This document shows, piece by piece, positions 1 through 29,741 of a stretch of 64,000 bases of DNA. The notes below the pieces were generated by a model. That model was not told the origin of the DNA. It did no database searches and saw nothing but the letters and a program-made list of their open reading frames with translations. Origin of the DNA: Pandoraea sputorum (GTDB lineage Bacteria; Pseudomonadota; Gammaproteobacteria; Burkholderiales; Burkholderiaceae). The first letter of the stretch is position 1, and every line of letters starts with the position of its first letter. The stretch is from NCBI RefSeq assembly GCF_000814845.2, contig NZ_CP010431.2, positions 2,976,001 to 3,040,000 of the forward strand, written 5' to 3'. The position numbers were made by a program, and so were the translations under genes.

Positions 1-1101
1 ACGCGTGCCCAAACGCAACTCCCCTCGGACAAACGCGTTCCGCCGCTCACGAACTGCGGGCAACTCATCAGGCGATTCAGGAAATCGAAGTTCTCCTGCC
101 CGCGTGATCCTGCACGCATGAGTGACGCCGCGCCGGACAGCGTGTTGAGCGCGCGTCGGTAGCTCGCCGCGTCTCCCACACTCGCAAAGGGCTGGAACAG
201 CGGACCGGCGTCGACAAGCCCCTGATCCCAAAGCCATTGCAAGTGATTGGCAAACGACGACTGATTACCATTGAGCGCAACGCCTTGCGGTTTGAAGTTG
301 GCGTCGACGGAGATCAAGGGGTCCTGCGTGCCGCCGTAGTGGTCCTTCATCTGATAGCTGAAGACGAGCGCCGTGCTTTTCGCTGTTGCAGACTCGCCCG
401 TTGGCGCACGGTCGAAGTGACCAATTCCGAGCCAGATGTTCTTGACCGGATTGTGCAGCACCGGCACGACGCTGCCACCGAACGTCAACGCACCGGTAGT
501 CACCAGAAAATCGCTGTTGTGACGCGTGAAATCGAGGTCGGGCGCGTACACACCGGTGCCCGTTTGCGAAAACGCGCCGTCGACGGTCGATGCCTGAAAC
601 ACGCCCGGACCGCCCGGATTGAGCGTGCCGTAGTTCTGCAACAACCCCGTCGTGACGCGGCTGGCCGTGTGCAGTGCACCGCTTTGCTGGTTGACGAACG
701 TGCTGTCGGAAGTAAGCTGTACGTTCCCCTGGACCCGCCCGGTATTGCTCACACTTGCACGGCTCGCCGATTCGATGGCCGTGGCTGCCGTAAGTGTGCC
801 CGCGTTATCGACGCTCACGCCGTCGGTCGTGATCGCCAGCACACCGATCCCGGACGTCGCGTTGGCGGCTACAGTCGCCCCGCTGCCGATGGTCACGCTG
901 ATCGGCTTGCCTTGCGTGGTCTCGCTCGCATTACCTCCGGTGCGGCCCGTACTGATTGCAGCGATTGCGGGGGAGCCCGCACCCATCGCCACGACCGTCG
1001 CGCCCGGCGCAATCGCGACGCTCACTGTGCCACCACTGTTCCCGCTCGCATTGCCCGAGTTCTTGAGCAGGATGCCACCGTCGCTGAACACCGCCCCGCC
1101 C
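1..1101 (-). CDS. Autotransporter fragment 4: end of passenger and approach to the beta-domain, partial
   Basis: The frame is open from the third frameshift to the window edge, about 365 codons. It reads through a less glycine-rich region with the GTLNPGGPGV motif and with FSQTGTGVYAPDLDF, both common where an autotransporter passenger ends. It then passes to NFDFLNRLMSCPQF and SEGSCVWAR, which in known autotransporters sits at the entry to the C-terminal barrel. No start codon belongs to this piece, since it is a continuation of the upstream fragments. The gene continues left of position 1. Confidence 0.55.
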
Positions 1102-2083
1102 CAAGACTCATGGCGAGGATGGCCGGAGCATTGGCACCGTATGTGGCGACGCCACCCGCAACGTTGACGGTCACTGTGCTTCCCGTGCCCACCGCCCCCG
1201 CGATGTCGGCCAGATGGACAACGCTCGTCCCATAAGTGACGGACGCCGCATCGCCAGCAATGCCACCGCCGCCACCGACACTTTGTGCGAGGACGCCGAC
1301 CGCGCCGTCGCCGGTCGTCTTCACCTTGCCTGCGACCGATACGTCGACGGTGCCGCCATCGTTCACGCCAGCGGTCGTGAGCGTGTTGTTGAGCGACGCA
1401 AGCGTCACGCGACCGGGCGCCGTCGAAAGGCCAGCGATGCCACCGCCGCCCCCCACGCTTTGCGCGACGATACCGAACGCGTTGCGCCCCTGCGTCTGAA
1501 TCGCGGAGCCTGCGTCCGCCATCACACTGACCTGTGCCCCCGCGCCGCCGGTTTGCCCCTGCGCGCCTAACAGCAAACTGGTGATCGGCAACGACGACGG
1601 CTGCCCGTCGCTCACCGATGCGGCATAACCGCCGCCCCCGCCAATGCTTTGTGCGAGCACACCGAACGAAAGCGCACCAGCCGTCGCTATCGTTGTCGGA
1701 GCGCCGAGGGAGACGGTCACATTGCCAGCCATGCCCAAAAGGCTGTTGGCCCCCGATTGAGACGCGCCGAGTTGCATCACCGGTCCCGCAAGCAACGCCA
1801 TCGCGCCGCCGCTTGCGACCCACCCGGCGGCGCCCCCGCCGCCCGACACCGATTGCGCGAAGATGCCATGAGAGAGCGCCCCCGTGGTCTCGATGGTCGC
1901 GGTATTTGTCACCGTCGCCGTACCGCTGCGAACGAGCGCGGGTGCGGCCATGCCGGTCACCGACGCACCCAGCGACAATGCCGGTGACGTCGCCCCCTGT
2001 CCTTGCGCGAGATACGTGCTCGCGTTCCCGGCCAGATTGGCGACGGCAACGCCACCACCGCCCGCAATGTTCTGAGCGAGCAC
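1022..2083 (-). CDS. Autotransporter fragment 3: distal passenger
   Basis: This is the third open stretch, beginning VLAQNIAGGGG. It holds GIFAQSVSGGGG, GVLAQSIGGGGG, GIVAQSVGGGGG and GVLAQSVGGGGG repeats. The frame is lost at about 1099 (ILAMSLGAG followed by unrelated Arg/Cys-rich residues). One extra base in the C4 run at 1099-1102 restores LGGGAVFSDGGILLKNSG and the open frame of the terminal fragment. Confidence 0.5.
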   Translation of the reverse strand: MLAQNIAGGGGVAVANLAGNASTYLAQGQGATSPALSLGASVTGMAAPALVRSGTATVTNTATIETTGALSHGIFAQSVSGGGGAAGWVASGGAMALLAGPVMQLGASQSGANSLLGMAGNVTVSLGAPTTIATAGALSFGVLAQSIGGGGGYAASVSDGQPSSLPITSLLLGAQGQTGGAGAQVSVMADAGSAIQTQGRNAFGIVAQSVGGGGGIAGLSTAPGRVTLASLNNTLTTAGVNDGGTVDVSVAGKVKTTGDGAVGVLAQSVGGGGGIAGDAASVTYGTSVVHLADIAGAVGTGSTVTVNVAGGVATYGANAPAILAMSLGAGRCSATVASCSRTRAMRAGTVVAQ

Positions 2084-3189
2084 GCCGCTCGAATCGTCCC
2101 CGTGGGTGCTGATGGCCCCCCGCTTTTCACGACCACCGGAAACGACGTGCCGCTCACGCTGCTAATCGTCGAGTCATAAGCTGCGCCGAGCGAGAGCGCC
2201 AACGCGGGTTGCGTGGCCCCGGCCGTCGCGCCGAATGTGCTCGGTCCGAACGTATAGGCACTTGCGCCAGCGAGCCCCCCTCCACCAGCAATCCCATGCG
2301 CAAGGATGCCCGGTGAGTTGTCACCGAGCGTTTGAATCTGGCTCGACGCACTGCTTGCATCTACGGTGACCAACCCCGCATAGCCTGCGCCACCGCCTTT
2401 CGCACCAACGCTCACGTTCACGTTGTGTTGGGCGCTCGCCAGATTGGAGCCGAGAAGATCGACGATGCGGGTGATGTCGCTCAGAATGCCGGGGGCGTCC
2501 TTCGCGGCCCAGTTGGACAGGAAGACATCAAGATTCTGCGCAGTCGAAACGCCAGCACCGCCCCCGCCACCGATGCTTTGGGCAACGATGCCGGGGGAGG
2601 CGAAACCCTTCGTGACGATGGTGCCCGTTTGGGTTACACCGACCGGCCCGCCGTTGCCGCCGCTGCCGCCCGATCCGCCCACAGCAACATTGGTACCAGT
2701 GTTCGGTGACACCTGAAAATACTGTCCGATCTTCCCCGTCACCACACCGAGCAAGCTGTCGATGCTCGACATGAGGCTCGACGCGCTTGTCGACGTGGCC
2801 GTCCCGCCACTACCGCCCCCGCCGCCGACGCTTTGCGCGACGATGGCCGCTGCGCCGTCTCCCGTGGTCGTGACTTGCCCGTTGTTGAACACGCTGGCGC
2901 CAACGCCGTCACCGCCGCTGCCGCCCGAGCCGCCAACGCGCACGTCGACACCGACCTTGAGCGAGCCGAATTTCACGTTCAACGACTGACCGGACGTCTC
3001 CAGCCACTGCATGATCGTCTGCAACGTGCCTAGTGCGGATGTCGGCGAACCCAGCGTTGCCGAGAACGACTGGGCGGTCTCCTGCTGCACGCTGCCGCCA
3101 TTGCCGCCGCCACCGCCGACACTCTGCGCCAGAATGCCGATGGCGTGATCGCCGGATGTCTCGACGATGCCCGTGACGCTATTCGTCAC
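1957..3189 (-). CDS. Autotransporter fragment 2: central passenger
   Basis: This is the second open stretch of the same gene. The listed start is only the first GTG after the frameshift, not a likely real start. It contains GILAQSVGGGGG, AIVAQSVGGGGG, GIVAQSIGGGGG and GILAHGIAGGGG repeats separated by serine- and valine-rich segments, as expected for a beta-helical passenger. From about 2121 down to 1957 the translation is out of frame (Arg-rich, no repeats), because the C run at 2116-2121 appears one base short. Confidence 0.5.
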   Translation of the reverse strand: MTNSVTGIVETSGDHAIGILAQSVGGGGGNGGSVQQETAQSFSATLGSPTSALGTLQTIMQWLETSGQSLNVKFGSLKVGVDVRVGGSGGSGGDGVGASVFNNGQVTTTGDGAAAIVAQSVGGGGGSGGTATSTSASSLMSSIDSLLGVVTGKIGQYFQVSPNTGTNVAVGGSGGSGGNGGPVGVTQTGTIVTKGFASPGIVAQSIGGGGGAGVSTAQNLDVFLSNWAAKDAPGILSDITRIVDLLGSNLASAQHNVNVSVGAKGGGAGYAGLVTVDASSASSQIQTLGDNSPGILAHGIAGGGGLAGASAYTFGPSTFGATAGATQPALALSLGAAYDSTISSVSGTSFPVVVKSGGPSAPTGTIRAACSLRTLRAVVALPSPIWPGTRARISRKDRGRRHRHCRWVRR

Positions 3190-5573
3190 AGTGGCGACGC
3201 CGCCTGCGCCTCCGCTCCCCCCGCACCGCCGATAGACACGCCGACGCTCACGTCCAACCGGCTCCCCGGTGCGGACACCGTCTTCGCGCGTAACGGGGCG
3301 GCGGCGTTGCCGCCTGCGCCACCGCCGCCGCCAATACTCTGGGCCAGAATGCCGAGACTTCGGTCACCCTGCGTCACGATATTCCCGTCGTTTTCGACCT
3401 GCGCAAATCCGCCGTTTCCACCGCCTCCGCCACGTCCCCCGAGGCTGACGTGCGGACTGATCGTGCCCGTCGGGAGATCGGGCCCAAGATCGGGAGCGAT
3501 GGTGATGCTCGAAGCGCTGGCAAGGCCACCGTAACCGCCACCGCCGCCGATGCTCTGCGCGACCACGGCATCGCTGCTCACGCCTTGTGTGGTGATGCTC
3601 GCGTCGTCGTCCACGCTCACGCGGGCCGTGCCGCCCGTGCCGCCCTGTCCCCCGCTACCACCGTGACTGACGGCAACACCAAGTCCGATACCGACCGTGA
3701 TCGCGGACGACGATCCACCCACCCCACCGCCGCCGCCGATACTCTGCACGACCGCGCCAGCCGCCCCCGCCCCCGCTGTGGAAATCGCGCCCGCCTGATC
3801 GAGCGTAGCGGTGCCACCATCGCCGCCCGCCCCACCGCGACCGCCAGTGGCAATGCCTACGATAATGCCCGTGGTATCCGCGTCGCCGCCGTGCCCACCA
3901 CCGCCACCGATACTCTGCACCACGGCGGCAGGGCTCTGGTCGCCCGTCGTGAAAATCGCGCCGTTGTTCTGGACGTAGACATTGCCGCCTTGTCCGCCGT
4001 TGCCGCCCGCGCCGCCGCCAATGTTCATCAAACCCTGACTGATTTCGGCATTCCCAGCACCACCGCCGACGGCGTGCGTGAGGATGCCGATCGCATCGCG
4101 TCCGTTCGTGAGAATGTTGCCGTTATTGACGATGTTGACCGCGAGCGCCCCGGTATTGCCGCCAGCACCACCATCGCCGCCGTGCCCCGACCACGGCCCG
4201 GACGCTCCGCCGTTACCACCGCTGCCGCCAACGACCACCACGCGAATGCCGGTCGAGCCGAGCCCCTGCGTTGCGATGCTGCCGGAGTTCGTCACGGAAG
4301 CGCCGCCCGGTGTGCCACCGTCGCCGCCGGGGAATCCGCTCCCCGAATTGCCATCGCCACCATCACCGCCATCGCCGCCAAGGCTGTAGACGGCGATACC
4401 CGGCGCGTTGACACCGTCGGTGGAAATTGCCGCCCCGCTTTGTACGGAGACGTGCCCGGCATTGCCTCCATTCCCGCCTTTCACATCGATGCCCGCTCCT
4501 TTCGGGCTGCTGCCTCCGACGGCCCGGGCCAGAATTCCAGCCTCGCCGTTGCCGTGCGCGGTGATCGTGCCGTCGGCAATCGTCACATTGACATTGCCTG
4601 CATTGCCGCCCCATCCGGAATCGACATAACCGGCAATGTCGTCGTCGACACCAAGGCCACCCTGACCGCCAAGCGATTCCGCGCGAATCGCAGCGCCCCC
4701 CGTACCACTCACCGTGATCACGGCGCCGCCTTTGACCGTGATGTTTGCGTCTCCGGCATTGCCTCCGTACCCTGCGTTCAGGCCGGGAGTCAGGCCGCCC
4801 GAGGAAGGAATCGCGCTGTCCTTTCCGTTACCGCCGACGGATTGGGCCGAAAGTCCGTAGCCGATAGCGTTGACCGAGCCGCCGATCAGCGTGAGGGCGG
4901 CCAGATGACCGTCACCGCCAATGCCATGACCATCGCTGCGATTGCCCCAGAGGCCGCCATCGCCGCCAGCAGAGAGCACACTGACGCCGATGCCGGTGCT
5001 CATCACCGTGCTTTGTGCGAGTGTGAAGTCGATGATGCGGCCGATGCCACCATTGCCACCCCAGTGGTCACGGCCGTCGTCGTCGTCGTGGGGGTTGCCG
5101 TTTCCGCCATTACCGCCACTGACATCGACCAGCACGCCCGTGGCGCCGCCCGTCGTCTGAATGTTCAGTCCCGTCACGGACTGCGTGACGTCCTGACGGC
5201 CGTTTTCGCCGTTGTATCCGTTGCTGGACGTACAGCAGCCCCCGGTCGCGCCGCGATAGTTGAGTACGTAGGGGCCAGACGACTGTGCTGAGGCGTGACC
5301 GGCGAGGACGACGCTGGCCACCCCGCAGAGGGCCTTGAGCCGCAGTGGTGCCGTCAACGCGGCGGATTTGTCTCGCACGCTTCCCCCGAAATACCAGGCT
5401 GTGTTGCCGCTACGACAAGCGGTGTACCCGGCATGCAAATATGGCGCGCTTTCGCGGAGCTTCGCCGGGTACGCTGAGTTTCGCAGCAACATACCACCCG
5501 TTCGGCACGGCATTCCATCCCCAGAAATGAGTAATACGAAGAATTGACGGTCGATGTCGGTCGGGTGCCCCAT
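3186..5573 (-). CDS. Autotransporter fragment 1: signal peptide and first passenger repeats
   Basis: This is the N-terminal open stretch of the broken autotransporter, up to 795 residues. It carries the signal sequence, an unusual CC pair shortly after the predicted cleavage site (GGCCTSSNGYNG), and about ten repeats that become more regular toward the end (AVVQSIGGGGG, AVVAQSIGGGGG, GILAQSIGGGGG). The last residues, EAQAASPL, are read out of frame after a run of six C at 3217-3222. With seven, the frame would continue as GGAGGVATVTNSVTG, which is the start of fragment 2. Confidence 0.6.
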   Translation of the reverse strand: MGHPTDIDRQFFVLLISGDGMPCRTGGMLLRNSAYPAKLRESAPYLHAGYTACRSGNTAWYFGGSVRDKSAALTAPLRLKALCGVASVVLAGHASAQSSGPYVLNYRGATGGCCTSSNGYNGENGRQDVTQSVTGLNIQTTGGATGVLVDVSGGNGGNGNPHDDDDGRDHWGGNGGIGRIIDFTLAQSTVMSTGIGVSVLSAGGDGGLWGNRSDGHGIGGDGHLAALTLIGGSVNAIGYGLSAQSVGGNGKDSAIPSSGGLTPGLNAGYGGNAGDANITVKGGAVITVSGTGGAAIRAESLGGQGGLGVDDDIAGYVDSGWGGNAGNVNVTIADGTITAHGNGEAGILARAVGGSSPKGAGIDVKGGNGGNAGHVSVQSGAAISTDGVNAPGIAVYSLGGDGGDGGDGNSGSGFPGGDGGTPGGASVTNSGSIATQGLGSTGIRVVVVGGSGGNGGASGPWSGHGGDGGAGGNTGALAVNIVNNGNILTNGRDAIGILTHAVGGGAGNAEISQGLMNIGGGAGGNGGQGGNVYVQNNGAIFTTGDQSPAAVVQSIGGGGGHGGDADTTGIIVGIATGGRGGAGGDGGTATLDQAGAISTAGAGAAGAVVQSIGGGGGVGGSSSAITVGIGLGVAVSHGGSGGQGGTGGTARVSVDDDASITTQGVSSDAVVAQSIGGGGGYGGLASASSITIAPDLGPDLPTGTISPHVSLGGRGGGGGNGGFAQVENDGNIVTQGDRSLGILAQSIGGGGGAGGNAAAPLRAKTVSAPGSRLDVSVGVSIGGAGGAEAQAASPL

Positions 5574-5675
5574 CGACCTCCCCTGTTTCGGGGATGGCAG
5601 ACGCGTTCGCAGGCGTGCTATTTTGCGATACCGATGCTACGCCCCCCGTCTCTCCCTTCTTCCCCTTCGTCAGCC

Positions 5676-6410
5676 ATGTCTGCCAGCACGCTTGCGAATA
5701 TCGAACCGGTATTGCCCGGTCCGTTGTTGCTCGTAGAAGACGATCCGAGCATGCAAATTCGCATGCGCGCCATTCTCCATTCCCTTGGCTATACCGATGA
5801 CGCGGTGCAAGTCGCCGGGAGCCTTGCGCAGGCGCGGGCGGTGCTCGCCGACGAACCGTTCGCACTCATATTGATCGACGTCGGCTTGCCCGACGGCAGC
5901 GGCATCGACCTGATCGGCGAGTTGCATGCGCGCGACCCCGCCCTGCCGATTCTGGTAATCTCCGCGTGGAGTACGGAACAGATCATCGTTGGGGCCCTGC
6001 AACGCGGTGCCACGGGATATCTGCTCAAGGAGCGCGAGGACACAGAGATCGCGCTATCGATTCGCAGTGCGCTGCGCGGGGGCGCACCGATCGATCCGTT
6101 CGTGGCACGGCACATTCTGGGGCTGGTTGCACTCGCGCCCGGCGTGTCAGGCACACCGGTGCCGCCTTCCGGTACCGGCAGCGGCCTGGCGGCGGCGCGA
6201 ATGTCCGATGTTCCGTCGGCGCTAAGCCCGCGCGAAGTCGAGATTCTCGGACTCGTGGCCAAAGGCATGACGAACCGCGAGATTGCAGCATTGCTCTCCA
6301 TCTCCAGCCTCACGGTCGCATGTCACATCAAGAACATCTACAAGAAGTTGGCGGTCAATTCGCGCACACAGGCCGTGTTCGAAGCCCGCGTCTCCGGCTT
6401 GTTGCCCTGA
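5676..6410 (+). CDS. NarL/FixJ-type two-component response regulator
   Basis: This is a 244-residue DNA-binding response regulator. The receiver domain (LLLVEDDPSMQIRMR onward) has acidic residues ED near the N-terminus and a predicted phospho-acceptor Asp at about residue 68 in LIDVGLPDGSG. The C-terminal LuxR-type helix-turn-helix reads LSPREVEILGLVAKGMTNRE, with the recognition part TVACHIKNIYKKL. Ala-Cys replaces the usual Lys-Thr/Arg before His. ATG 5676 gives a normal receiver start; an in-frame ATG at 5634 would add 14 residues. The sensor kinase gene overlaps or abuts the 3' end, and the giant autotransporter is divergent, so it is a natural candidate target. That link is inference. 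Confidence 0.9.
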   Translation: MSASTLANIEPVLPGPLLLVEDDPSMQIRMRAILHSLGYTDDAVQVAGSLAQARAVLADEPFALILIDVGLPDGSGIDLIGELHARDPALPILVISAWSTEQIIVGALQRGATGYLLKEREDTEIALSIRSALRGGAPIDPFVARHILGLVALAPGVSGTPVPPSGTGSGLAAARMSDVPSALSPREVEILGLVAKGMTNREIAALLSISSLTVACHIKNIYKKLAVNSRTQAVFEARVSGLLP

Positions 6411-8293
6411 CACTGATCAAGCTGATCACACTGATCGCCCTGCTCTGGCTGTTTGCCGCCACTGCGCACGCGCAACGCTCCATCGCCCCACGCCCGGTTT
6501 CCGACGCCTCGTTGCCGTTCGAGCACATTGAAGCCGTGCGCGGCGACTGGCAAGCGACGCAGCCACCGAATGCCGGTTGGATTCCTGTAACGCTGCCGGA
6601 CGTATGGACATCGCACTGGCCGCGTTTCGATGGCGTGGTCTGGTACCGGCTGACATGGCAGGAGCCGTCGCCCGTCAAGGCACGGGGCCTGATGCTGGAA
6701 TACCTGAATATGGCCGGCATGGTCTATCTGAACGGCAGCCTGATCTCACGTGACGATTCGCTGGTCGAGCCGCTGAGTCGTGCCTGGAACACACCACGCC
6801 ATTGGGTCGTCGACGCGCCGACGCTTCGTGCCGGATCCAACGTGCTGCTGGTGCGTGTCTCTGGCCTTGCGGCGTATAGTCCGGGACTCGGTCCGGTGCT
6901 GCGGGGATCGCCTGACGAAATCCGTTCGGCGTACGACAAGGCACGATGGCTGCGCCACGATCTGCAGCTTTTCAGTCTGGCGATCACCGTCACGCTCGGC
7001 GTGGTAGTGCTTACGCTTTGGCTATACCGTCGGCAGGAGACGTCGTATGGGTGGTTCAGCCTCATGTCCTTCGCATGGTGGCTCTACGCCGTCAATCAGA
7101 TCGTCACGCGACCTTGGCCCTTTGCGACCAACGATGGCTGGCAGTTGTTCGTGTCCATCGCGTTTCTCTTTTACTGCGCGTGCTTCACCATGTTCGTGCT
7201 GCGCTTCTGCGGCAGACGCATGCCTCGGATCGAGGCCGCGATGTGGATCACGTTCGGAGTGGGCGCAGCAACGCTGATCGTTGCACCGCGAACCTATACG
7301 GAAACGCTGCGCGCGATCTGGGCCGTCGTGCCCGGCATGACGTGGCTGGCAACCTGCGTGCTGCTGTTCGTCCTGACGTGGCGCGAACGGCAGACGGAAC
7401 AACGAATCGTCTCGCTTTGTGCGCTCGTGTTCGTCGCCGCCGGGTTGCATGACTTTCTCGTGTTCTTCGGCATTCTGGACTCCAACGTCTACTACACCGC
7501 ACAAACCTCACAGATTCTGATGATCGGCATGGCCGTTGTGCTGGCACGACGATTTGCCAACAACGCCCGACGCATCTCACAGTTCAATGACGAACTCAAG
7601 CAGGCGATCGACGACGCCCGAGGCGAACTGTCGTCCACCCTGAATCGTCAGCATGAACTGCAAGTCGCCAACGTCAGGCTTGCCGAGCGGCTCAATCTCG
7701 CGCACGACCTGCATGACGGGTTGGGCGGTACGCTGGTGTCGGGCATTGCCGCTATCGAACATGCGCCACACACGCTGCCACCGGAGCGCTTTCTTGCGCT
7801 GCTGAAGGAATTACGGGACGAGTTGCGCTTCGTCGTCGACAGCGCAACGGTGCATCAGGCGGGAGAGCAGGCACTGGCCGAGCAGATTGCTTCCTTGCGC
7901 CATCGAATGACTGCGCGTTTCGAGATTCAGATGATCGAGTGCGAATGGCGCGTGGAAGGCATCGAGCGATGCGAAATGGGCGCCGCCCGATCTCTGGAAG
8001 TGCAACGCATTTTGCAAGAAGCGCTGACCAATGTCCTCAAGCACAGCAAGGCCAGCTGCGTGCGCGTGGATCTGCATGACGTCGACGGCGAATTTACGCT
8101 GCGAGTGGAAGACAACGGCGTTGGCTTCGACACTGGTCGGTTTGACGACGCTGGGGAAACCGTCCCTCGCGCGTCACACGAAGGTACCGGCTTGCACAGC
8201 ATGAAACGGCGCGCGCAAAAACTGGGCGGCACGATGACGATTACGCGGGAAGGAGGTTGCACAGTCTTGTGCGTCAGGATGGGAACCGCTTAG
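6320..8293 (+). CDS. Membrane sensor histidine kinase, HisKA_3 (NarX/DegS-like) class
   Basis: This is the probable partner of the upstream regulator. After a signal-like hydrophobic segment (LLWLFAATAHA) comes a periplasmic beta-sandwich resembling 7TMR-DISM sensor domains (WIPVTLPDVWTSHWPRFDGV, VWYRLTW). Several membrane segments follow, then a dimerisation helix with the phospho-acceptor His in LAHDLHDGLGGTLVSG (about residue 465), and an ATPase domain with EALTNVLKHSKA and VEDNGVGFD. The start is uncertain. The only ATG close by is 6320, overlapping the regulator gene by 91 bp. The signal peptide itself begins nearer 6407-6413, where only CTG codons exist in frame. Translational coupling to the regulator gene is likely. 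Confidence 0.85.
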   Translation: MSHQEHLQEVGGQFAHTGRVRSPRLRLVALTLIKLITLIALLWLFAATAHAQRSIAPRPVSDASLPFEHIEAVRGDWQATQPPNAGWIPVTLPDVWTSHWPRFDGVVWYRLTWQEPSPVKARGLMLEYLNMAGMVYLNGSLISRDDSLVEPLSRAWNTPRHWVVDAPTLRAGSNVLLVRVSGLAAYSPGLGPVLRGSPDEIRSAYDKARWLRHDLQLFSLAITVTLGVVVLTLWLYRRQETSYGWFSLMSFAWWLYAVNQIVTRPWPFATNDGWQLFVSIAFLFYCACFTMFVLRFCGRRMPRIEAAMWITFGVGAATLIVAPRTYTETLRAIWAVVPGMTWLATCVLLFVLTWRERQTEQRIVSLCALVFVAAGLHDFLVFFGILDSNVYYTAQTSQILMIGMAVVLARRFANNARRISQFNDELKQAIDDARGELSSTLNRQHELQVANVRLAERLNLAHDLHDGLGGTLVSGIAAIEHAPHTLPPERFLALLKELRDELRFVVDSATVHQAGEQALAEQIASLRHRMTARFEIQMIECEWRVEGIERCEMGAARSLEVQRILQEALTNVLKHSKASCVRVDLHDVDGEFTLRVEDNGVGFDTGRFDDAGETVPRASHEGTGLHSMKRRAQKLGGTMTITREGGCTVLCVRMGTA

Positions 8294-25972: not shown

Positions 25973-28276
25973 TTAGAACGACGTACCGACCTGGAACTGG
26001 AATTTCTGATACTGGTCGCCCGTCTTCTTGACGAGCGGGAAGCCCATCGAGAGCTTGAGCGGGCCAATCGGTGAAATCCACGACAGACCGAAACCGTAAG
26101 AATAGCGCAGGTTATTGAAGGTAATCGCCTGGCCGTTATCGAACACGTTACCGCCGTCGAAGAACGTAAAGATGCGCAGCGTACGATCGTAACCCGTGCC
26201 CGGCAGCGGGAACGTCAGTTCGACGTTACCGATCAGCTTCGATGCACCCCCCAGCGGTTCGCCGTTCGTGTCCTTCGGACCCAGCGAGCTCGGCTCATAA
26301 CCACGCACCGAACCGATACCGCCCGCGAAGTAGTTCTTGAAAATCGGGAACGGCTGACCGCCCATACCGTGGCCGTAGCCCACTTCGCCGTTCAGCGCCA
26401 GCGTAAAGCCGCGGCTCACCGGGTAGTAGTACTGGTGCTGATAGTACGCGCGGAAGTACTTGGTCGTTCCGATCGGCGTACCGATTTCGATGTTCGCCTG
26501 CTGGTAGTGACCACGGTTCGGGATCAGCGCGCTGTCACGCGAGTCGCGCGACCAGCCCACCGTCAGCGGATAGTTGTTGCTGACGTAACCGAACTGGTTG
26601 GCATAGTCGATGTAGCGTTGCGGCGTCGTGCCGTCGCTCGTCAGATGCAGACGCGTCTGTTCGAAGCCCAGACCGAAGAAGACCGTGTCGACTTCCGAGA
26701 ACGGCACGCCGAACTTCAGGTTGCCGCCCAGCGTATTGATACGGAAATCCGAATCGCTGGTCAGCAGCAGCGGCTGATACGTACGGTAGTAGATGTCGGT
26801 AATACGGCTCACACCGTCAACCGTGAAATACGGGTCGACTTGCGTTACGGCCAACGTACGATACGTCTTACCGGTGTTCACGTTCACGGACAGCGACGTA
26901 CCTGAGCCGAACACGTTGTCCTGGCTGATACCTGCCTGCAACACCACCTTGTCGGTCGAGGAGAAGCCGGCACCGACGTTGATCGTGCCCGTCGGCTTTT
27001 CTTCCACCTTCACCTGGAGGTCGACCTGATCGTTCGAACCGGCCACCGGCTCGGTCGTGACGTTCACGTCGGTGAAGTAGCCCAGACGGTTGATACGGTC
27101 CTGCGACAGCTTCAGGCGGTCGGCGTCGTACCACGAGCTCTCGAGCTGACGCAGTTCGCGGCGAATCACTTCGTCACGCGTACGCGAGTTGCCGACGATG
27201 TTGATCTTGCGCACGTACACACGACGGCCCGGATCGATCGACAGATTGAGCGCGACGGTGTGGTTGTTACGGTCGATGTTCGGTTGGGCGTTCACGTTCG
27301 CAAACGCGAAACCATAGTTGCCCAACAAATCGGAGATGGCTTTCGTGCTCGCCTGCAGTTTGGCCGCCGAGAAGGTATCGCCGGCCTTGAGTTGGATGAG
27401 CTTCTGGATGTCGTCTTGCTTACCGAGCATTTCGCCCGTCAGCTTGACGTCCGACACCTTGTAGGGCTCGCCTTCGTGAATGTTGATCGTGAGGAACATC
27501 TCGTCCTTGTCCGGCGTAATCGAGACGTCGGTGGAGTCGATGTTGAATTCCAGATAACCGCGGTTCAGATAGAACGAACGCAGCTTTTCCAGATCGCCCG
27601 TGAGCTTGTCCTTCGAGTACAGGTCGTTCTTCGAATACCACGACAGCCAGTTCGGCGTGCCCAGTTCCATCTCGGCCGTCAGGTCCGACGACGAGAAGGC
27701 CTTGTTGCCCACGAAGTTGATCTGCTGAATCGTCGCCTTCGGACCTTCCGTCACGGCGAACTGGATGCCCACGCGATTGCGCTCGAGCGGCGTGATCGTC
27801 GTCTTGACCTCGGCAGCGTAGTAACCGCGCGTAAGGTATTGACGCTTAAGTTCTTGCTCAGACTTGTCGAGCAGGTTGCGGTCGAAGGTGCGACCTTCAG
27901 TCAGGCCGACCGAGCGCAGTGCCTTCTTCAGACCGTCTTTGTCGAATTCCTTGATGCCGAGGAAGTCGATGGAAGCAATTGCGGGACGCTCGTTGACGTG
28001 CACCACCAGCACGCTGCCCTGCGCTTCAACGCTCACGTCCGAGAACAGGCCCGTGGCATAAAGGGCACGAATTGCTTCGGTGCCCTTATCATCGTTGAAC
28101 TTGTCACCGGGTTTGACCGGCAGGTACGAGAAGACAGTACCGGGTTCAATACGCTGCAAGCCCTCCACTCGGATATCCTTGACCACAAACGGCTCGACGG
28201 CCCGTGCCAGGAAACTGTGTGCCGCCAGAACCGCAATCACCAGGGTCTTCGGAACAAGGTGGTATTTATTCGACAA
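25973..28276 (-). CDS. bamA: Outer membrane protein assembly factor BamA
   Basis: This is the essential Omp85 insertase of the BAM complex. The 767-residue precursor has signal peptide TLVIAVLAAHSFLARA, five POTRA domains (from FVVKDIRVEGLQRIEPGTVF to about residue 425), and a 16-strand barrel with the VRGYEPSSLG motif. It ends in Phe (FQFQVGTSF), the expected C-terminal insertion signal. The start is TTG 28276 with GGGGAAG just upstream; the next Met is far inside the POTRA region. rseP precedes it and skp follows. Confidence 0.97.
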   Translation of the reverse strand: MSNKYHLVPKTLVIAVLAAHSFLARAVEPFVVKDIRVEGLQRIEPGTVFSYLPVKPGDKFNDDKGTEAIRALYATGLFSDVSVEAQGSVLVVHVNERPAIASIDFLGIKEFDKDGLKKALRSVGLTEGRTFDRNLLDKSEQELKRQYLTRGYYAAEVKTTITPLERNRVGIQFAVTEGPKATIQQINFVGNKAFSSSDLTAEMELGTPNWLSWYSKNDLYSKDKLTGDLEKLRSFYLNRGYLEFNIDSTDVSITPDKDEMFLTINIHEGEPYKVSDVKLTGEMLGKQDDIQKLIQLKAGDTFSAAKLQASTKAISDLLGNYGFAFANVNAQPNIDRNNHTVALNLSIDPGRRVYVRKINIVGNSRTRDEVIRRELRQLESSWYDADRLKLSQDRINRLGYFTDVNVTTEPVAGSNDQVDLQVKVEEKPTGTINVGAGFSSTDKVVLQAGISQDNVFGSGTSLSVNVNTGKTYRTLAVTQVDPYFTVDGVSRITDIYYRTYQPLLLTSDSDFRINTLGGNLKFGVPFSEVDTVFFGLGFEQTRLHLTSDGTTPQRYIDYANQFGYVSNNYPLTVGWSRDSRDSALIPNRGHYQQANIEIGTPIGTTKYFRAYYQHQYYYPVSRGFTLALNGEVGYGHGMGGQPFPIFKNYFAGGIGSVRGYEPSSLGPKDTNGEPLGGASKLIGNVELTFPLPGTGYDRTLRIFTFFDGGNVFDNGQAITFNNLRYSYGFGLSWISPIGPLKLSMGFPLVKKTGDQYQKFQFQVGTSF

Positions 28277-28349
28277 CTTGCTTCCCCAAGAAACAATTGA
28301 ATCGTAAAAACTCGGATTTGCCTGCGACCGGCAGGCACGTGACGCTGTC

Positions 28350-29741
28350 CTAGTGCAACAACTTCGACAGGTCGTTGAAAAGTGCTACGGCAGAGAGCGC
28401 AAGGATGCAAACGATGCCCACTCGTTGCAGCGCGCCCTGCCACCGTTCGGAAACTGCCCGACCGGTAATCGCTTCGACCGCATAATATAACAGATAGCCA
28501 CCGTCCAAAACCGGAATCGGCAATAGATTCAATACGCCGAGGCTAATGCTGACAAGCGCCAGAAAGGCGATGAAATAATCCAGACCGAGCCGAGCCGAAC
28601 GCCCTGCGTAATCCGCAATCGTCACCGGACCGCTCAGATTCTTGAGCGATGCCTGCCCAATGATCATCTTCCCAAACATGCGCACGCTGAAGGCTGTCAC
28701 ATCCCACGTGCGCTGCGCCCCGCGGCCAATCGCCTCGAATAGCCCGTAGCGGACGGTCACCGAATCGACCTGACTGGCCAGCGCTGCGCCGATCTTGCCC
28801 ACACGCTCGCCCCCCGTCGTTGCCGAATCGACTTCCACATTCGGCGTCAGTGTGACGTTTTGAGGGCTGCCGTCCCGGCGCACCGTCAGGGTCATCGGCT
28901 TGCCCGGGTGGGCACGAACGGCATCGACGAGCGCCTTGGCGGACGTCACCGGACTGCCATCCACCGCCGTAATCTCGTCGCCCACGCGTAACCCGGCAAG
29001 TCCGGCAGCACCGCCTGCGATGATCTGTCCTACCTTGACGCGCGCTGAGGGCACCAGGCCCAGACGCTGCATGAAGTCCTGTTCGCCATCTGCGTCGAAA
29101 TGCTGCCCGGCCGCGTCCAGCGTGTATTCCGCACGGCCATCGCGCGTGCGCGCCACCAGCGTCACGCGCTGCCCTTCGATCATCGGGTCGACCAGGCGCC
29201 AGCGAAGATCTTCCCAGGAACGCACTGCCGCTTCCTCGCCGACGGCCTCATCGGGACTTCGGCCGTTTTCCCGCACCCCGGTGATCAGTTCGCCGCCGGA
29301 CAACCCTGCACGGGCTGCAAGCGTGCCGGCCGCAGGCGGCGCGATTCGCGCGACAGGCTCCGCCACCCCCGCCAGATTCAGGCTCGCATAGAGGGCAATG
29401 GCAAGGAGGAAGTTGGCGACCGGACCGGCCGCCACAATGGCGAAACGCTTGTAGACAGACTTTTGATTGAACGCACGCGCCCGGTCTTCCGGGGCGACGA
29501 TCTGCGTTTCGTCACGCTCGTCAAGCATGCGGACGTAACCGCCGAGCGGCAATGCGCAGACCGTCCATTCGGTGCGGTCCCGCCCCATCGTCCATTTGAG
29601 GAGCGGCGTCCCGAAGCCCACCGAGAATCGCAGAACCTTCACGCCGCAAAGCCTTGCGACCGTGTAGTGGCCCAACTCATGGAACACCACCAGAACACCA
29701 ATGGCGATGGCGAACGCTAGCAACGTGGTCAGCAGATTCAT
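28350..29741 (-). CDS. rseP: Site-2 zinc protease RseP
   Basis: This inner-membrane intramembrane protease cleaves anti-sigma factors in the envelope stress response. It has 463 residues. The zinc motif HELGH is at residues 21-25 in the first helix. Two PDZ-like regions follow (AGLSGGELITGVRENG; AGLAGLRVGDEITAVDGSPV). The second metal-ligand motif NLLPIPVLDGGYLLYYAVE is in a late helix. It sits between dxr and bamA, the standard order. Confidence 0.96.
   Translation of the reverse strand: MNLLTTLLAFAIAIGVLVVFHELGHYTVARLCGVKVLRFSVGFGTPLLKWTMGRDRTEWTVCALPLGGYVRMLDERDETQIVAPEDRARAFNQKSVYKRFAIVAAGPVANFLLAIALYASLNLAGVAEPVARIAPPAAGTLAARAGLSGGELITGVRENGRSPDEAVGEEAAVRSWEDLRWRLVDPMIEGQRVTLVARTRDGRAEYTLDAAGQHFDADGEQDFMQRLGLVPSARVKVGQIIAGGAAGLAGLRVGDEITAVDGSPVTSAKALVDAVRAHPGKPMTLTVRRDGSPQNVTLTPNVEVDSATTGGERVGKIGAALASQVDSVTVRYGLFEAIGRGAQRTWDVTAFSVRMFGKMIIGQASLKNLSGPVTIADYAGRSARLGLDYFIAFLALVSISLGVLNLLPIPVLDGGYLLYYAVEAITGRAVSERWQGALQRVGIVCILALSAVALFNDLSKLLH

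What the first reader, a model, noticed from the sequence alone, without database searches (positions are those of the whole stretch)
1099..3222. Three one-base frameshifts, all at C runs, in a single giant autotransporter
The frame breaks at 3217-3222 (C6), 2116-2121 (C6) and 1099-1102 (C4). At each, one added base restores the AQSIGGGGG repeat register and joins fragments into one frame. No other gene in the window shows a break. This is compatible with phase-variable surface expression, with pseudogene decay, or with assembly error in a repetitive, GC-rich locus. Three errors of the same sign in one gene and none elsewhere is notable.
Basis: partly seen in the sequence, partly recalled or inferred. 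Interest (0 to 1): 0.75.

Follow-up and report, generated by a model that had tools for sequence, protein, structure and literature searches.

The report
Broken giant autotransporter, not a switch
A giant surface-protein gene of a Pandoraea bacterium is cut into four reading-frame pieces by three one-base changes, while close relatives carry it whole, so it looks like a recent loss or a sequencing fault rather than an on/off switch.

Summary
One autotransporter gene (Gly-rich passenger plus PF03797 barrel) runs on the minus strand from window 5573 to 801 bases beyond the window's low end, in four overlapping frame pieces. Nine of 10 other Pandoraea genomes with a match carry it as one frame of 2078-2161 codons; the tenth is a draft, probably a MAG. 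A database protein about 97-99% identical to every piece is intact.

Phase variation is not supported: short runs, no widely shared tract, three separate lesions. Long decay is not supported either: substitutions show purifying selection. Genome-wide error is not raised: 1 of 299 other tested genes has an internal frame change.

New here: breaks cluster in autotransporters. Of nine with comparable orthologues, four are broken (five one-base frame changes, one nonsense codon), against 0 of 16 orthologues in two relatives. I put genuine recent, strain-private inactivation slightly ahead of local consensus error in a probably PacBio-only assembly. Reads must decide. Interest is low to moderate.

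The parts
3186..5573 (-). Piece 1: N-terminus with signal-like segment and first part of the Gly-rich repeat passenger (795-aa ORF; 816 codons stop to stop)
   Evidence: 783/787 identical to P0001 residues 1-787. Six of nine intact relatives match only from about residue 46-75 on, so the true start may be further inside (inference).
3205..3225 (-).
   Evidence: Piece 1 matches to residue 787 and piece 2 from 785 of the intact relative.
1957..3189 (-). Piece 2: passenger (410-aa ORF from an internal GTG; 468 codons stop to stop)
   Evidence: 355/358 identical to P0001 796-1153.
2105..2125 (-).
   Evidence: Frames meet at residue 1153 of the intact relative.
1022..2083 (-). Piece 3: passenger (353-aa ORF; 379 codons stop to stop)
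   Evidence: 320/330 identical to P0001 1165-1494.
1090..1105 (-).
   Evidence: Frames meet at residues 1493-1494 of the intact relative.
1..2126 (-). Piece 4: end of passenger; the 975-codon frame runs 801 bases beyond the window (L034 7199-10126) and carries the PF03797 barrel (G000 2975262-2976014)
   Evidence: PF03797 at 3.7e-39 in this piece; 361/366 identical to P0001 1493-1858 within the window.
5676..6410 (+). Divergent LuxR-type response regulator, probable regulator of the autotransporter
   Evidence: PF00072 and PF00196; found beside the autotransporter in 8 of 10 relatives. Regulation itself is inferred.
5966..8293 (+). 7TMR-DISM sensor histidine kinase ORF (true start inside)
   Evidence: PF07695, PF02518; beside the gene in the same 8 of 10 relatives.

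Best explanation
A genuine, very recent, strain-private inactivation of a conserved two-component-linked autotransporter, one of several autotransporters broken in this Pandoraea genome. Intact, the protein would be a classical autotransporter: a signal segment, a long Gly-rich repeat passenger and a C-terminal barrel that brings the passenger to the surface. Here translation leaves the frame after about 787 codons, far before the barrel, so no passenger would reach the surface. Shown: the four pieces, the barrel on the last one, intact relatives, purifying selection until recently, other broken autotransporters. Inferred: that the DNA sequence is right, that expression fails, and that loss was tolerated or favoured.
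For: Intact in 9 of 10 other matching genomes and in a near-identical database protein, so the breaks are recent. Breaks concentrate in autotransporters: frame changes in 3 of 9 against 1 of 299 other genes (Fisher 7e-5; without this gene 2 of 8, 0.0018). One sibling is broken by a single-substitution TAA codon where both relatives have sense, which is not a homopolymer error. Homopolymer contractions are not raised in this genome: 5 of 1899 scored runs, against 2 of 1901 in G004 and 8 of 1904 in G001.
Against: Three one-base losses of one sign in one gene, with little sign of relaxed selection: private substitutions by codon position 40/28/185, controls 27/25/204 and 43/31/164; private residues since the split from P0001 10 against 5 (P 0.30). 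The chance of two further such losses in the time allowed came out as 0.6-5%, 21% (loose bound) and 3-15%. Five of six lesions in the class being one-base losses has P 0.4-17% under neutral spectra. All of these rest on rough rates. The autotransporter comparison was made after seeing short frames, and these genes are long.
Confidence: 0.47

Rival explanations
1. Local consensus error: the gene is intact in the organism, and an assembly probably made from PacBio reads alone lost single bases at short G/C runs in this GC-rich repeat gene.
For: All three changes are one-base losses at or beside G/C runs; the gene is rich in such runs (3.7 runs of 5 or more per kb against 0.95 in 880 kb of the genome); selection looks intact; 9 of 10 other matching genomes are intact. 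The probable species' type-strain genome of DSM 21091 was PacBio with HGAP3 (PMC6691176, passages and one section). Long-read indel errors are mostly at homopolymers (PMC12007338, passages).
Against: No genome-wide excess of run contractions or frame changes. By run count 0.074 changes were expected in the gene. The orthologue in G016, a single-contig genome whose size is within 29 bases of a PacBio assembly listed in PMC6691176, is unbroken with two runs of 8; that identity is a guess. A sibling break is a nonsense codon, and another lies outside a run.
Confidence: 0.4
2. Phase-variable surface expression by slippage at the runs.
For: C6/C7 slippage in bvgS of Bordetella pertussis is a real precedent at this run length (PMC1891110, passages). 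Runs of 6 or more sit at the first break site in 3 of 11 genomes and at the second in 2 of 11, this one included.
Against: No site has such a run in more than 4 of 11 genomes, and the longest run is 8. Three lesions would have to switch together, one of them at a run of 4. Nine of 10 relatives are in frame.
Confidence: 0.04
3. Mixture: one real break plus one or two consensus errors in the same gene.
For: Would explain a real class of broken autotransporters and the single sign of the changes.
Against: Needs two causes in one gene; nothing here tests it directly.
Confidence: 0.09

Closest known systems
Lineage-associated decay of capC/capD autotransporters in Campylobacter (PMC7168839, abstract and passages)
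   Same: Autotransporter genes found intact or inactive through frameshifts and stops; for capC, inactivation did not follow the poly-G tract length.
   Different: There thousands of genomes were compared; here one strain against one genome per species, and nothing shows lineage inheritance.
bvgS C6/C7 phase variation in Bordetella pertussis (PMC1891110, passages)
   Same: One-base change in a six-C run that truncates a protein.
   Different: One tract, mixed populations shown; here three sites, no population data, no widely shared tract.
Autotransporter outer membrane beta-barrel domain-containing proteins of Pandoraea, Cupriavidus, Achromobacter and Bordetella
   Same: Full-length homologues of about 2030-2130 aa at 43-95% identity, with the barrel at the end.
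   Different: The hits listed are full-length proteins; this copy is in four pieces.

Membership tests
Classical (type Va) autotransporter | C-terminal PF03797 beta-barrel | tested here: met
   PF03797 in piece 4 at 3.7e-39 and at G000 2975262-2976014 at 5.5e-40; the whole intact relative protein gave 0 Pfam families in hmmscan.
Classical (type Va) autotransporter | N-terminal signal peptide | tested here: inconclusive
   A hydrophobic segment ending AxA is seen by eye in piece 1; no predictor was run.
Classical (type Va) autotransporter | Beta-helical passenger | tested here: inconclusive
   Piece 3 folded alone gave strands only, mean pLDDT 35.7; piece 4 had no PDB sequence match at E 0.01.
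Phase-variable contingency gene | Unstable tract kept at a fixed place among relatives | tested here: not met
   No site has a G/C run of 6 or more in more than 4 of 11 genomes; longest 8.
Phase-variable contingency gene | Mixed tract lengths within a population | not testable with these tools
   No reads available.
Pseudogene | Broken frame where orthologues are intact | tested here: met
   Four pieces here; one frame in 9 of 10 other matching genomes.
Pseudogene | Relaxed selection | tested here: not met
   Private changes by codon position 40/28/185, like the controls; 10 against 5 private residues, P 0.30.
Sequencing or consensus error | Excess of one-base homopolymer changes across the assembly | tested here: not met
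   One-base contractions in 5 of 1899 runs, controls 2 of 1901 and 8 of 1904.
Sequencing or consensus error | Reads contradict the consensus | not testable with these tools
   No reads available.

The most novel reading that the evidence does not exclude
This strain is shedding its autotransporter set: several independent recent lesions silence different surface autotransporters while the rest of the genome stays intact, as would be expected from selection against surface exposure in a chronic-infection isolate or from culture-collection adaptation.
Probability: 0.3. Interest if true: 0.45.

Novelty: new member of a known kind. Interest (0 to 1): 0.22.

Why it matters
If real, it adds Pandoraea to the bacteria that lose autotransporters by recent inactivation, and gives a list of candidate surface genes to check in other isolates. 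If artefactual, several giant surface genes of the probable reference genome are misread, and work that takes its gene list at face value would miss them.

Tried and rejected
Looking for the same fragments in other assemblies: a search with piece 1 gave 3 proteins, none near-identical (best 57%), and piece 2 gave none. The database is clustered at 90%, so fragments may be absorbed in P0001's 34-member cluster; this is uninformative.

A first reading that the bamA-like gene at 25973-28276 was also broken was dropped: the change lies upstream of the frame shared with both relatives.

A first estimate that neutral decay was nearly excluded was weakened by the noncoding indel rates, and both are reported. 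A first count of 16 against 5 private residues fell to 10 against 5 when residues near the breaks were left out.

A structure of piece 3 was too poor to use. A second broken draft, G027, breaks at another place (matches end near query residue 727 instead of 787); its contig length equals that of a protein labelled MAG. In G016 another autotransporter has lost its barrel region; the alignment there showed no small non-triplet change. The plasmid collection held no match to window 1-6000.

Dropped before the count of nine autotransporters: five of 14 barrel hits in G000 (1327491, 1329977, 2751190, 5576497 for want of a clear orthologue at 70% identity or of a fetched one; 5336679 as below cut-off). 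Two of the nine (4338121, 4865024) were judged by open-frame length only. AT627 and AT5390 were compared with G004 alone.

Full report
What and where. The window is G000:C1:2976001-3040000 of a 5,742,997-base single-contig genome. The nearest named relatives found with piece 1 are Pandoraea aquatica LMG 31011 (95%) and P. anapnoica LMG 31117 (93%). Size and G+C (62.6% in 880 kb) fit the P. sputorum type strain: NCTC13161 is held under a BioProject named in PMC10939042 (passages), a 5.74-Mb, 62.78% P. sputorum assembly is listed in PMC9355198 (one passage), and DSM 21091 is listed at 5,751,958 bases, 62.80%, PacBio with HGAP3 at 215x in PMC6691176 (passages and section 16). The identification is an inference; no call names the genome.

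The gene. On the minus strand, from window 5573 to 801 bases beyond the window's low end, four overlapping frame pieces make up one autotransporter. The last piece carries PF03797. A divergent LuxR-type response regulator and a 7TMR-DISM histidine kinase lie beside it, and they lie beside it in 8 of 10 relatives too, so the pair probably regulates it (inference). Homologues of similar length at 43-49% identity occur in Cupriavidus, Achromobacter, Variovorax and Bordetella.

The breaks. In a three-way DNA alignment they are three one-base losses private to this genome, with none in G004 or G001. Of 32 genomes of the genus searched, 11 match, this one included; 9 of the other 10 have a single frame of 2078-2161 codons, and G027, a 210-contig draft, has two pieces broken elsewhere. 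The intact database protein P0001 matches the pieces at 783/787, 355/358, 320/330 and 361/366; its strain is not shown.

Is the genome generally faulty? Three regions of G000 (880 kb fetched) were compared with the matching stretches of G004 and G001. Genes entered the test if intact in the other two genomes. Internal frame changes with at least 100 matching residues on both sides, read off the table, occur in 1 of 299 genes besides this one in G000, 0 of 294 in G004 and 1 of 293 in G001; frame changes of any kind in 11 of 300, 6 of 294 and 8 of 293; in-frame stops in 16, 11 and 19 genes, not examined further. At homopolymers of 4 or more that are equal in the other two genomes, one-base contractions number 5 of 1899, 2 of 1901 and 8 of 1904, and one-base expansions 7, 8 and 5. 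So errors are not raised across the assembly. The gene itself is rich in runs: 24 of 5 or more G/C (3.73 per kb against 0.95), 5 of 6 or more (0.78 against 0.18).

Is it old decay? Private substitutions by codon position are 40/28/185 here, against 27/25/204 and 43/31/164 in the relatives. Against P0001, private residues are 10 here and 5 there, outside the break zones (2036 columns, binomial P 0.30). The gene was under selection until very recently. Whether three one-base losses fit into so short a time is unsure: estimates for two further losses run from 0.6-5% through 3-15% to 21% under a loose bound. The first estimate used G/C runs only, the later ones noncoding indel rates.

Is it a switch? 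Runs of 6 or more G/C occur in all 11 genomes, but no site has one in more than 4 of 11, and the longest is 8. The first break site has such a run in 3 of 11 and the second in 2 of 11, this genome included. bvgS shows that C6/C7 slippage can switch a gene (PMC1891110, passages), but here three sites are hit and 9 of 10 relatives are in frame.

The class. G000 has 14 PF03797 hits, 13 over the cut-off. Nine could be compared with orthologues. Four are broken: this gene; 1436289, with one frame change, a one-base loss at a G/C run; 627065, with one frame change, a one-base loss outside a run, compared with G004 only; and 3863502, with a TAA at codon 509 of 1119, one substitution from sense in both relatives. 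Five are not broken (1440036, 2870070, 5390354 by tblastn; 4338121 and 4865024 by open-frame length). Orthologues in the relatives: 0 of 16 broken (9 in G004, 7 in G001). One search gave Fisher 0.008 with 17; a recount gives 16, for which hand arithmetic gives 0.010. Frame changes alone: 3 of 9 against 1 of 299, P 7e-5; without this gene 2 of 8, P 0.0018. These tests came after the short frames had been seen, and autotransporters are longer than most genes; by length, two changes in about 35.5 kb against 0.105 expected has P 0.005.

Verdict. Class clustering, a nonsense codon and a clean background favour inactivation; one sign, run context and intact selection favour error. Of six class lesions, five being one-base losses has P 0.4-17% under neutral spectra. 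The known parallel is autotransporter decay in Campylobacter (PMC7168839, abstract and passages). A literature search for Pandoraea with autotransporter gave 4 papers, none with both in the title or abstract (listing only).

Noticed in passing
G000:C1:1436289, 627065 and 3863502 (outside the window; L167, L170, L169): Three other autotransporter genes are broken against intact relatives: two by one-base frame changes, one by a nonsense codon.
   Followed up: partly
G000:C1:4702563-4703568 (L144): The one non-autotransporter gene with an internal frame change in 299 tested: a private one-base gain at a run of seven G. The N-terminus looks anti-sigma-like by eye (recalled, no call).
   Followed up: partly
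window 28277-28443: Private contraction of a T run upstream of the bamA-like gene; could affect its expression, not its frame.
   Followed up: partly
window 5676-8293: A LuxR-type response regulator and 7TMR-DISM kinase lie divergent to the autotransporter and stay beside it in 8 of 10 relatives; not found near it in G013 and G027.
   Followed up: partly
L187 (G016:C1:1408001-1416000): Another autotransporter in G016 matches its relatives only to about residue 606 of 818 and lacks the rest of its barrel.
   Followed up: partly
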